Assembly (NCBI GenBank): GCA_021811635.1
Contig: JAJZNS010000036.1
Span: forward strand, 1 to 10,449
Origin: Thermoplasmata archaeon
GTDB taxonomy: Archaea > Thermoplasmatota > Thermoplasmata > Thermoplasmatales > Thermoplasmataceae
Direction of reading: 5' to 3'
DNA length: 10,449 nucleotides
In this document: piece after piece, positions 851-9,220 of the stretch
Layout of the letters: each line of letters begins with the position of its first letter
Position numbering within the stretch: the first letter of the stretch is position 1
Notes under the pieces: generated by a model
Told to the model about the DNA's origin: nothing
The model's input: only the letters and a program-made list of their open reading frames with translations
Database searches by the model: none
Made by a program: the position numbers and the translations under genes

Positions 851-888
851 ATGACCAGAATTAGCCAATAGTTGAAAATACTGGTCAT
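851..888. promoter_or_regulatory. Candidate operator, wide form, upstream of homocitrate synthase
   Basis: ATGACCAG (851-858) and CTGGTCAT (881-888) form a perfect 8-bp inverted repeat with a 22-bp spacer. The same arms, ATGACCA and TGGTCAT, form the compact inverted repeat at 9203-9220. Arm start-to-start distance is 31 bp here and 11 bp there, a difference of 20 bp or about two helical turns, so the arms keep the same face of the helix. The left arm also has a degenerate partner (TAGCCAA, 862-868) at the compact spacing, so this may be two overlapping weak sites rather than one wide site. Binding by the ACT-domain protein encoded at 9233 is inferred. Confidence 0.55.
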
Positions 889-913
889 AGAATTCAATAA
901 ATAAGCAATTAAT

Positions 914-1972
914 TCAGAGGGCTGAAATTATGGAGTCTGTCACCTTTTTCGTATCTCCGTTTCCGCCAAGGTCTGGGGTCAGGTTATTCGTATTTTTTAA
1001 TGATTGTTTCACCGCTCCATCAATTCTTTTTCCTAAATGTATGAGGCGTTCATCCATGTATCTGTTTCCAAGCCAGTCAAAGAGCATTGCGGCAGAAATA
1101 ATTTCCGATATTGGATTGGCTATCCCTTTCCCTACAATGTCTGGGGCGGTTCCATGCGCGGCCTGTGCCATCGCCCAGTCATCCCCATAATTCAATGCGG
1201 GTGCTACTCCCAGGCTGCCGGCTACCGCAGCTGCCTCGTCGGAAAGTATGTCTCCATACATATTGGTGGTAACTATGACATCAAACATTGCGGGATTGAT
1301 AATCAGGTCATATGCCGTAGAGTCGATAAGCCTGTCATTTACAGTTACGCCAGGAAAATTTTTTGCCTGATTATAGAACTCCTCCCTGAAGAGGCCGTCG
1401 CTCATCTTAAGGACGTTTGCCTTATGCACTGCAGTTACCATCTTTCTTCTGGTCAGAGATATTCTCAATGCCGTCTCGCTGATCTTAGCACTTTTTTGCC
1501 TGGTTATTACCCTGACCGCCATCGCAAGATCTTGAGTGGGCATGTATTCGCCAGAACCCATGTACATGTTCCGGTCAGCATAAAACCCTTCCGTGTTTTC
1601 TCTTACAACCACAATATCAATTGGTTTCTGGTTTGTATGAATGTAGGTTTTGACGGGCCGGACATTGGCATAAAGATCAAATTTTCTGCGAATAGTTCCG
1701 GAAGGACTTTTGCTGTCTCCCGGATATTTTCCCACCTCCAGGGGACCCAGAATTAGGGAGTCACAGGCCGATATCACTTTCATTGTTTCATTAGTGAGGG
1801 GGGCACCATGACGTGATTGCGATGTCCAACCGATATCGATCTCCATGAAATTCAATATGTCTTTCATGCTCTCTGAGGCCATTGCACTCTGTATCACTTT
1901 TAGAGTGGGTTCGATAATTTCCGGTCCTATTCCATCTCCTTTTCCAACAGCTATGTCATAAAATTCCTTCAT
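914..1972 (-). CDS. Homoisocitrate dehydrogenase (NAD-dependent beta-decarboxylating dehydrogenase)
   Basis: The 352-residue product belongs to the isocitrate/isopropylmalate/homoisocitrate dehydrogenase family. It would oxidise and decarboxylate homoisocitrate to 2-oxoadipate. Visible motifs are GDGIGPEI near the N-terminus (12-19), an Arg-rich substrate segment ending RRKFDLYANVRP (95-106), HKAN (catalytic Lys184), NMYGDILSDEAA (metal ligands Asp241 and Asp245) and HGTAPDIVGKGIANP (273-287). The Asp in HGTAPD fits NAD rather than NADP preference. Family membership is clear; homoisocitrate as substrate is inferred from the surrounding lysine genes, and isocitrate or isopropylmalate activity cannot be excluded. 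An in-frame GTG at 1981 would add three residues. I prefer ATG 1972 because AGGTGA (1980-1985), a six-base match to the archaeal Shine-Dalgarno, then sits 7 nt upstream. It follows the small homoaconitase subunit by 17 bp. Confidence 0.88.
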   Translation of the reverse strand: MKEFYDIAVGKGDGIGPEIIEPTLKVIQSAMASESMKDILNFMEIDIGWTSQSRHGAPLTNETMKVISACDSLILGPLEVGKYPGDSKSPSGTIRRKFDLYANVRPVKTYIHTNQKPIDIVVVRENTEGFYADRNMYMGSGEYMPTQDLAMAVRVITRQKSAKISETALRISLTRRKMVTAVHKANVLKMSDGLFREEFYNQAKNFPGVTVNDRLIDSTAYDLIINPAMFDVIVTTNMYGDILSDEAAAVAGSLGVAPALNYGDDWAMAQAAHGTAPDIVGKGIANPISEIISAAMLFDWLGNRYMDERLIHLGKRIDGAVKQSLKNTNNLTPDLGGNGDTKKVTDSIISAL

Positions 1973-1989
1973 TATTTTCACCTAAAATT

Positions 1990-2499
1990 TTACAGCGGTT
2001 TGGCATCTATATAACCGTTGTTCCTCAGGACTTCTATTATTCCCCCTGCCTCTATGATATCCATCAGGAATTTCGGAATAGGCGTGAAGGCGATTTTTCC
2101 ACCCCTGGTCAGGTTGGCGAAGGTACCTTCAGTGAGATCAATTTCTATACGGTCTCCTTCCACCACCATTGATCTGACATCTGGAGACGAGACTGCAGGC
2201 AATCCAACATTAACTGCATTTCTAAGAAACAGGCCGTTCAGGCTCTCTGCAATTACACCCGAAATGCCAACGCCGAGAAGATTGGAGGCGGCAGGCCTGG
2301 ATGAACCAACACCGAAATTCTTGCCACCCACAAGAATATCACCCGCTGATACAAGGGCTGACCAGCCCGGCCTGTTCGCCCACATTGTAAATTTTGGCCT
2401 CTCGCTTTCTGGCATGCCATAACAGATATGTGGATACATGAGATCCGTGTTGATATCATCCCCGAATACCCATGCCTTTCCACTTAAAGACCTGTTCAA
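1990..2499 (-). CDS. lysU: Homoaconitase-type dehydratase, small subunit
   Basis: This is the swivelling-domain subunit of an aconitase-superfamily hydro-lyase, expected to pair with the large subunit to isomerise homocitrate to homoisocitrate. With the proposed start the protein has 169 residues, normal for LeuD/LysU-type subunits. Visible are GDDINTD (13-19), the active-site loop VGGKNFGVGSSRPAA (57-71), AESLNGLFLRNAVNVGLPAV (84-103) and a closing IIEAGGIIEVLR. The start is TTG at 2497-2499, overlapping the large subunit's TGA as TTGA. The frame stays open upstream to 2697 but only inside the large-subunit gene, and no ATG or GTG gives a sensible N-terminus. The segment after GDDINTD reads LMYPHICYGMPESERP instead of the IIPxxYLRT-like loop of methanogen homoaconitase small subunits. 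This suggests another subfamily; isopropylmalate-type activity is possible. The adjacent pathway genes favour homoaconitase. Confidence 0.8.
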   Translation of the reverse strand: MNRSLSGKAWVFGDDINTDLMYPHICYGMPESERPKFTMWANRPGWSALVSAGDILVGGKNFGVGSSRPAASNLLGVGISGVIAESLNGLFLRNAVNVGLPAVSSPDVRSMVVEGDRIEIDLTEGTFANLTRGGKIAFTPIPKFLMDIIEAGGIIEVLRNNGYIDAKPL

Positions 2500-8914: not shown

Positions 8915-9088
8915 TTATTCTCCCCAGTCCTCTTTTACATTTTCTGCAGCTTTCAAGGTTATGGTTCCAGCTACCACTTCCTGTATCTCATAATCCAATC
9001 CGCAGTCTTCGCAACCGACTATCTCGCCCTTTAATGCATCATCGGGTGCTATTACTTTTCCGCCACATACTGAACATTCCAGATCCAT
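8915..9088 (-). CDS. lysW: LysW, amino-group carrier protein
   Basis: The 57-residue acidic protein is the carrier on which aminoadipate is converted to lysine. Two zinc-binding pairs are visible, CSVC (Cys5, Cys8) and CEDC (Cys26, Cys29), forming a small zinc ribbon. The C-terminus is EDWGE, the diagnostic LysW end whose last Glu receives the substrate through its side-chain carboxylate. ATG at 9088 is preceded by AGAGGAAAT (GAGG 8-9 nt upstream). As first gene of the operon it is divergent from the ACT-domain regulator. Its TATA element lies about 105 nt upstream, implying a leader of about 80 nt. The family match is unambiguous. This is the key gene that sets the locus apart from diaminopimelate-type or fungal lysine synthesis. 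Confidence 0.96.
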   Translation of the reverse strand: MDLECSVCGGKVIAPDDALKGEIVGCEDCGLDYEIQEVVAGTITLKAAENVKEDWGE

Positions 9089-9185
9089 TTCTATTTCCTC
9101 TTAAGTTCAAACACATCCAGGAAACTTCGCTTCTGACTTACAGCATTCCCTCTGAGTTTGTTTTGTTCTACTGCGTTGATTTTGA

Positions 9186-9197
9186 AAAATTATTAAT
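9186..9197 (+). promoter_or_regulatory. TATA box of the divergent regulator gene
   Basis: The AT-rich block AAAATTATTAAT on the plus strand is spaced so that transcription would begin near 9220, about 12 nt before the ATG at 9233. The palindrome at 9203-9220 would then lie between TATA box and start, a classic position for autorepression. This block overlaps the lysW TATA element on the other strand, so the two promoters may compete. Confidence 0.45.
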
Positions 9198-9202
9198 ACT
9201 TT
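9191..9202 (-). promoter_or_regulatory. TATA box of the lysW operon
   Basis: Read on the minus strand the sequence is AAAGTATTAATA, immediately after the TGGTCAT arm of the 9203-9220 palindrome. The same order (TGGTCAT, then AAA and TATTAA) occurs upstream of homocitrate synthase. The expected transcription start is near 9170, leaving a leader of about 80 nt before lysW. Confidence 0.45.
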
Positions 9203-9220
9203 ATGACCATAATTGGTCAT
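9203..9220. promoter_or_regulatory. Candidate operator, compact palindrome, in the lysW/regulator divergent promoter
   Basis: ATGACCATAATTGGTCAT is a perfect inverted repeat with 7-bp arms (ATGACCA / TGGTCAT) and a 4-bp spacer. The arms recur at 851-888 in front of homocitrate synthase. The site abuts the lysW TATA element on one side and spans the region between TATA and start of the regulator gene on the other. Binding by the adjacent winged-helix/ACT protein is inferred from position and motif sharing. Confidence 0.6.

What the first reader, a model, noticed from the sequence alone, without database searches (positions are those of the whole stretch)
851..9220. Same inverted-repeat arms at both lysine-gene promoters, spaced two helical turns apart in one
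ATGACCA/TGGTCAT arms occur as a compact palindrome at 9203-9220 (arm start-to-start 11 bp) and as a wide one at 851-888 (31 bp). The 20-bp difference keeps the arms on the same helix face. In both cases TGGTCAT on the minus strand is followed directly by a near-identical AT block (AAATATTAA / AAAGTATTAA) that serves as TATA box. I saw no third intergenic copy. This points to one regulon joining the lysW operon, the regulator gene and homocitrate synthase, the committed step. The wide site may need a higher-order oligomer or looping.
Basis: partly seen in the sequence, partly recalled or inferred. Interest (0 to 1): 0.72.

Follow-up and report, generated by a model that had tools for sequence, protein, structure and literature searches.

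The report
Shared switch for archaeal lysine genes
In an acid-loving archaeon and its relatives the same short mirrored DNA word sits at the start of the lysine-making genes, of the gene for homocitrate synthase and of a neighbouring unstudied sensor protein, which points to one small control circuit run by that protein.

Summary
The regulon claim is well supported. A compact dyad near ATGACC-N6-GGTCAT recurs at orthologous promoters: 10 of 11 lysW promoters beside the regulator have it (at most 2 mismatches), against 0 of 17 without the regulator (14 of those 17 are sister genera).

The 'wide palindrome' reading is probably wrong. In relatives G040 and G078 the homocitrate synthase promoter has three half-sites: a compact dyad beside the TATA box plus one arm 20 bp upstream. 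In the window and G047 the inner arm has degenerated (4/7 and 5/7), so the intact outer arms mimic a wide palindrome.

The likely regulator has an N-terminal helical domain distantly related to DUF7523 and an aspartokinase-like tandem ACT sensor; it shows no Lrp domain. The dyad lies exactly 4 bp from TATTAAT in 10 of 10 loci measured, and that TATA box may serve both directions. Autorepression is likely; whether lysW and homocitrate synthase are repressed or activated is open. No binding data exist.

The parts
9203..9220 (.). Compact dyad operator ATGACCA-TAAT-TGGTCAT shared by the divergent regulator and lysW promoters
   Evidence: homologous dyad in 10 relative loci (3 mismatches in one of them, 2 or fewer in nine); arms conserved while the central N6 is not
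9191..9198 (.). TATTAATA box, probably serving both the regulator (+) and lysW (-)
   Evidence: exactly 4 bp from the dyad in 10 of 10 loci measured; possible start codons of both genes 27.5-28.5 bp from its centre in three second-cluster loci of one genus
9233..9904 (+). Candidate regulator: N-terminal helical domain (distant DUF7523 kin) plus tandem ACT domains. Start ATG 9233, or TTG 9224 which lies 29.5 bp from the TATA centre
8915..9088 (-). lysW, amino-group carrier protein, first gene of the lysW-Y-Z-J-X-K operon
   Evidence: NF041070 80.8 bits, cut-off 75
882..888 (-). Distal half-site of the homocitrate synthase operator (sense ATGACCA)
   Evidence: 7/7 conserved at the same spacing in the window/G001, G047, G078, G040; absent in G106, G109, G084
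862..868 (-). Degenerate inner arm (sense TTGGCTA, 4 of 7)
   Evidence: aligned with TTGCCCA in G047 and ATGACCA in G078 and G040
851..857 (-). Promoter-proximal arm (sense TGGTCAT) of the compact homocitrate synthase dyad, 851-868
   Evidence: best dyad in the 150 bp upstream, at the homologous place; on its own 3 mismatches, shuffle p 0.075
842..850 (-). AT block AAATATTAA, probable TATA element of homocitrate synthase
   Evidence: abuts the dyad, as the AT-rich TATA-like stretches in G047, G078, G040, G106, G109 do (by eye)
2..808 (-). Homocitrate synthase gene, 5' part (start ATG 808; runs off the window)
   Evidence: LysS_fung_arch 355.7 bits over the 269 residues held, below the full-length cut-off 413.55; 2-isopropylmalate synthase model NF002085 scores 358.8

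Best explanation
The two sites are operators of one DNA-binding regulator, most likely the divergent ACT-domain protein encoded at 9233-9904. A dimer recognises the compact dyad, near ATGACC-N6-GGTCAT, whose arms lie one helical turn apart. At 9203-9220 a single dyad sits 4 bp to one side of a TATA box that seems to serve both directions. Bound there, it covers the start region of the regulator gene (autorepression by keeping polymerase out) and abuts the TFB-recognition element (BRE) of lysW. At homocitrate synthase the dyad again abuts the BRE side of the TATA box; in this clade an extra half-site 20 bp upstream on the same helix face probably lets a second dimer bind cooperatively, which tolerates decay of the inner arm. 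The ACT domains presumably sense lysine or arginine. Shown: the sequences, their conservation and spacing, and the tie to regulator presence. Inferred: binding, ligand, cooperativity and sign. I favour repression at lysW and homocitrate synthase (about 0.55) over activation (about 0.4).
For: Footprint: window against G106a at the regulator promoter has arms 12/12, TATA 8/8, central N6 1/6, upstream 8/20. Tie to the regulator: dyad with 2 mismatches or fewer in 10 of 11 lysW promoters with the regulator (G084 has 3), 0 of 17 without. Natural decay: G049, where only the first residues of the regulator are recognisable by eye, has AAGACTAATTATGGCAAT, 4 mismatches. Homocitrate synthase: compact dyad with 2 mismatches or fewer in G047, G078, G040, G106, G109, G084, and 3 in the window, at homologous distances of 33-42 bp from the start. 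Fixed geometry: TATA-dyad gap 4 bp in 10 of 10 loci. A symmetric base change in both arms in G106 and G109 (TTGACCA/TGGTCAA) suggests a symmetric dimer. Family context: in 8 of 10 more distant family loci looked at, the neighbours read by eye as argG, a homocitrate-synthase-like gene, lysJ/lysK-like genes or an amino-acid permease.
Confidence: 0.72

Rival explanations
1. LysM/Ptr2-like activator: the same protein binds the same sites, but the dimer just upstream of the BRE recruits TBP and activates lysW and homocitrate synthase when lysine is scarce, while the same dyad, lying downstream of the TATA box for its own gene, represses that gene. (A variant of the best explanation, differing in sign.)
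For: The review PMC2995911 (its section 6 read) gives these positions: activator dimers a few bp upstream of the BRE with extra upstream sites, and LrpA repressing its own gene from a site bordering the TATA box downstream. The homocitrate synthase dyad plus distal half-site fits the first, the regulator promoter the second.
Against: The dyad ends 4 bp from TATTAAT at lysW, so it should overlap or touch the BRE rather than leave a gap.
Confidence: 0.38
2. True wide operator: in this species the 31-bp arm spacing is bound by one higher oligomer or by looping, and the inner sequence is irrelevant.
For: Both outer arms are perfect while the inner arm is 4/7 in the window and 5/7 in G047.
Against: G040 and G078 have a perfect inner arm at the compact spacing, and G106, G109 and G084 have only the compact dyad there.
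Confidence: 0.13
3. Another regulator, for example an Lrp-type protein encoded elsewhere, binds these sites, and the neighbouring ACT protein only senses amino acids.
For: The N-terminal fold is not matched to a known DNA-binding domain; archaeal lysine genes are Lrp targets elsewhere (PMC2995911, passages).
Against: The dyad tracks the adjacent gene (10 of 11 against 0 of 17) and has decayed where that gene is a stub.
Confidence: 0.13
4. The repeats form an RNA hairpin (terminator, attenuator or riboswitch).
For: They are inverted repeats in intergenic DNA.
Against: By the inferred starts the compact dyad lies upstream of both transcripts; the wide one has a 24-base loop; no Rfam family reaches its gathering score in the window.
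Confidence: 0.02

Closest known systems
LysM of Sulfolobus solfataricus (Lrp-like regulator of lysWXJK)
   Same: Controls LysW-pathway lysine genes in an archaeon; its site lies near the BRE; lysine is the effector (PMC2995911, passages and section 6)
   Different: LysM is an Lrp protein; the protein here has no HTH_AsnC or AsnC domain hit and carries an aspartokinase-type tandem ACT sensor instead
Ptr2 and LrpA type archaeal promoters
   Same: A site activates or represses according to its place relative to the TATA box (PMC2995911)
   Different: Different protein family; a single dyad here faces two divergent genes, probably through one TATA box
Aspartokinase regulatory domains
   Different: No kinase domain; an 80-residue helical N-terminal domain instead
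DUF7523 / ACT_7 proteins (PF24367, PF13840)
   Same: Profile search from this family reaches proteins annotated with one or both domains, including ones of Thermoplasma acidophilum and T. volcanium
   Different: The window's protein itself does not hit PF24367; no paper held names DUF7523 or PF24367, and the listings I saw show no operator for such a protein
Bidirectional TATA promoters of Pyrococcus furiosus
   Same: Two transcripts from one TATA box, starts 49 bp apart in vitro (PMC6640164, passages)
   Different: There the authors think of non-functional antisense RNA; here two protein genes with inferred starts 56-57 bp apart in the second clusters, with an operator on one side

Membership tests
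Lrp/AsnC family (as LysM) | HTH_AsnC and AsnC_trans_reg (RAM) domains | tested here: not met
   Pfam scan up to E 10 lists only ACT_7 and ACT_9 for the window's protein
ACT_7 domain proteins | ACT_7 above the curated cut-off | tested here: met
   27.7 bits against 27
DUF7523 (PF24367) | match above the gathering score 27 | tested here: inconclusive
   no hit for the window's protein; close relative P0029 17.9 bits; distant kin P0051 36.2 bits
Aspartokinase | amino-acid kinase domain | tested here: not met
   no kinase-domain family among the Pfam hits; NCBIfam aspartokinase hits are far below cut-off; N-terminal 80 residues helical
Autoregulated divergent operator | conserved dyad between regulator and target, tied to regulator presence | tested here: met
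   10 of 11 against 0 of 17; 14 of the 17 are sister genera
Autoregulated divergent operator | specific binding by the regulator | not testable with these tools
   needs EMSA or footprinting
Bidirectional single-TATA promoter | both starts about 25-28 bp from one TATA centre | tested here: inconclusive
   fits in 3 second clusters of one genus (27.5-28.5 bp), though G109 and G107 have further in-frame starts downstream; the seven main clusters have 61.5-106.5 bp from TATA centre to lysW; no mapped transcripts

The most novel reading that the evidence does not exclude
A previously unassigned archaeal regulator family (DUF7523-like domain plus aspartokinase-type ACT sensor) uses one dyad, placed 4 bp to one side of a single bidirectional TATA box, to set which way the polymerase leaves: bound, it hides the BRE of the biosynthetic side and the start region of its own gene; ligand then decides between biosynthesis and autoregulation. 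At homocitrate synthase the same dyad gains a helically phased third half-site for cooperative control of the committed step.
Probability: 0.25. Interest if true: 0.72.

Novelty: new variant of a known kind. Interest (0 to 1): 0.5.

Why it matters
It would give a DNA target and a regulon to an archaeal protein family whose N-terminal part Pfam lists as of unknown function, and show that some archaea control the LysW lysine/arginine pathway with an ACT sensor rather than an Lrp protein. The promoter layout gives a compact test of how one bound dimer acts on two divergent archaeal promoters. Sister genera use another word (TACGAA) at the same promoter, which makes the swap of regulators traceable.

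Tried and rejected
Wide-palindrome reading: held against eight other homocitrate synthase promoters (seven scored, G098 only printed) and replaced by three half-sites.

Wider regulon: the full gapped pattern in 117 genomes has 20 places against 23 for the reversed control; 6 of the 20 are at these promoters and the other 14 were not inspected one by one. TGACC-N6-GGTCA in 12 genomes gives 30 places against 22; 10 of the 30 are at the lysine promoters. ATGACC-N6-GGTCAT with one mismatch in 6 genomes gives 27 against 32; 7 of the 27 are at lysine promoters. So there is no sign of many further targets. I looked at 11 other sites. A perfect dyad before a ribonucleotide reductase gene in G107 is absent in the 150 bp before that gene's match in the six other genomes with a match; against this, a TGACC-N6-GGTCA also lies upstream of an ATP-cone-like reading frame in G001 (L120). 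I treat both as chance, without proof.

Rows dropped before counts: the window stands for G001, and three weak lysW hits (G021, G022, G029) were left out, so 28 rows for 31. Of the homocitrate synthase hits I used 20 promoters plus the window (for G001), leaving out G042 (split over contigs) and the isopropylmalate-synthase-like hits, including G021 and G022 (42-44% identity). 'Without regulator' rests on the coordinates. One search stopped at its last row, G098, so 10 of 11 loci are measured; by eye its gap is also 4 bp.

N-terminal domain alone: 84 residues, pLDDT 79, no confident fold match; this does not show that it is not a helix-turn-helix. RNA element: no Rfam match at gathering scores.

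G098 has frameshifted genes and is 50% complete; G078 and G040 homocitrate contigs are 3.3 and 5.9 kb, 87-88% identical to the window in that protein, and may be wrongly binned.

Literature: 10 searches made. I saw their listings (one search shows 10 of 502 papers), passages and one section of PMC2995911, and passages of PMC6640164; nothing seen describes an operator for this family. The label COG2150 searched is recalled. Most subscription journals are not held.

Full report
What is there. The window is a lysine superoperon of a Thermoplasmatales archaeon; the closest named locus found, with 100% identical regulator, is from the metagenome assembly Thermoplasmatales archaeon UBA582 (L001). 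On the minus strand lie lysW, Y, Z, J, X, K, the two homoaconitase subunits, homoisocitrate dehydrogenase and then homocitrate synthase (named and gene order). The plus-strand gene at 9233-9904 diverges from lysW.

Conservation. I searched 117 genomes of the order for the regulator (57 with a match at E 0.001, many of them distant paralogues), for homocitrate synthase (52 at E 1e-20, likewise) and for LysW (29), mapped the genes on 18 fetched stretches and scored the best ATGACC-N6-GGTCAT upstream of each gene. With a divergent regulator next to lysW (11 loci including the window; one regulator broken), mismatches are 0 in four, 1 in four, 2 in two and 3 in one. Without it (17 loci) they are 3 in two, 4 in nine, 5 in five and 6 in one. 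Fourteen of these 17 are sister genera with another promoter word (below), so the close comparison is with G049, G085 and G095. Between the window and G106a the arms are 12/12 and the TATA box 8/8 identical, but the central N6 1/6 and the upstream 20 bases 8/20, which is a footprint rather than shared ancestry alone. G049 (99% complete, one contig) keeps lysW, but only the first residues of the regulator are recognisable by eye, and its dyad has decayed to AAGACTAATTATGGCAAT, 4 mismatches. G085 has lysW and the AT block AAAGTATTAATAAG but no dyad (6 mismatches); G095 has a 3-mismatch site, shuffle p 0.015, and no regulator beside it in the 407 bp held.

The wide site. Written in the sense of homocitrate synthase: window and G001 ATGACCA-N13-TTGGCTA-ATTC-TGGTCAT; G047 ATGACCA-N13-TTGCCCA-ATAT-TGGTCAT; G078 ATGACCA-N13-ATGACCA-ATTC-TGGTCAT; G040 ATGACCA-N13-ATGACCA-AAAT-AGGTCAT; G106 and G109 only TTGACCA-GTAT-TGGTCAA; G084 only CTGACCG-AAAT-AGGTCAC; G098 has no such dyad. 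The shared element is therefore a compact dyad beside the TATA box, and the clade of the window adds one distal half-site two helical turns upstream. Between the window and G047 the distal and proximal arms are 14/14 identical, the inner arm 5/7, the 13-base spacer 7/13, the left flank 12/30, the right flank 17/30. The window's inner arm by itself is weak (3 mismatches, shuffle p 0.075); its claim rests on homologous position. Independent lineages are few: the window's genus on one side and the G047/G078/G040 group on the other. G078 and G040 are short contigs that may be misplaced in their bins.

Promoter geometry. In 10 of 10 loci measured, TATTAAT(A/T) lies exactly 4 bp from the dyad. The regulator's ATG is 28.5 bp from the TATA centre in six loci; in the other four, including the window, it is 38.5 bp away, with an in-frame TTG at 29.5 bp in the window and G106a. 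In three second clusters of one genus (G106, G109, G107) the first in-frame ATG of lysW lies 27.5, 27.5 and 28.5 bp from the same TATA centre. In G106 it is the only in-frame start; G109 has further ones at 30.5 and 45.5 bp, the last with a Shine-Dalgarno-like stretch before it, and G107 at 31.5 and 43.5 bp. The seven main clusters have 61.5-106.5 bp from the TATA centre to lysW and a Shine-Dalgarno-like stretch at -10 to -12. So one TATA box may serve both genes, as shown for bidirectional promoters of Pyrococcus furiosus (PMC6640164, passages). For the regulator the dyad lies between the TATA box and the start; for lysW and homocitrate synthase it lies just upstream of the TATA box, against the BRE.

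Function and sign. The review of archaeal Lrp regulators (PMC2995911, passages and section 6) describes activators bound a few bp upstream of the BRE with extra upstream sites, and repression of lrpA by a site bordering the TATA box downstream that keeps polymerase out. The same dyad here takes the second position for its own gene and nearly the first for lysW and homocitrate synthase. I therefore take autorepression as likely and leave the sign at the targets open, with repression slightly favoured because the dyad touches the BRE. The ligand is a guess from the ACT domains and the pathway. G107, G089 and G090 have the regulator, the dyad and lysW-Y-Z-J-X-K, but only weak homocitrate synthase hits (31-34% identity; the operons), so arginine may matter as well as lysine; LysW-type pathways serving arginine are known (PMC10433800, search listing only).

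Regulon size. Genome-wide scans show no clear excess of further sites over reversed controls (20 against 23, 30 against 22, 27 against 32). Within the limits of incomplete genomes the regulon seems to be the regulator, the lysW operon(s) and homocitrate synthase.

Verdict. A real, small, conserved regulon with a newly proposed regulator family. The 'two turns apart' palindrome is better read as a compact dyad plus a phased third half-site.

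Noticed in passing
homocitrate synthase promoters of G042-G044, G061, G062, G064-G070, G096, G098 (L160-L182): Sister genera carry another word, TACGAAWTTMGTA, at the homocitrate synthase promoter: 14 of 16 genomes searched have a match and all 14 have one there by coordinates (14 of 23 places in all; reversed control 12 counts); it is also upstream of lysW in G042 and G096. Regulator unknown.
   Followed up: partly
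L142 (G106), L143 (G109), L145 (G107): A second divergent cluster of regulator paralogue, lysW2 and lysX2, with its own dyad ATGACCTATATGGTTCAT; perhaps splitting arginine from lysine duty.
   Followed up: partly
L067 and L155 (G049), upstream of lysW: Regulator reduced to a stub (about 25 residues recognisable by eye) with a decayed operator: a natural loss experiment.
   Followed up: yes
window 9203-9205: Some database versions of the regulator (233 aa) fit a start at the ATG inside the operator; comparison with relatives favours a later start.
   Followed up: partly
L131 (G107:C4:244148-244165) and L120 (G001:C4:10358-10373): Dyads of this kind before ribonucleotide-reductase-like reading frames; the G107 one is not conserved at that gene in six other genomes.
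   Followed up: partly
L137 (G001:C7:8844-8861): Near-perfect dyad followed by TTATATAA in intergenic DNA with no obvious gene after it.
   Followed up: no
window 811-834, minus strand: A seven-codon open frame just upstream of the homocitrate synthase start; also in G001 with one base changed.
   Followed up: no
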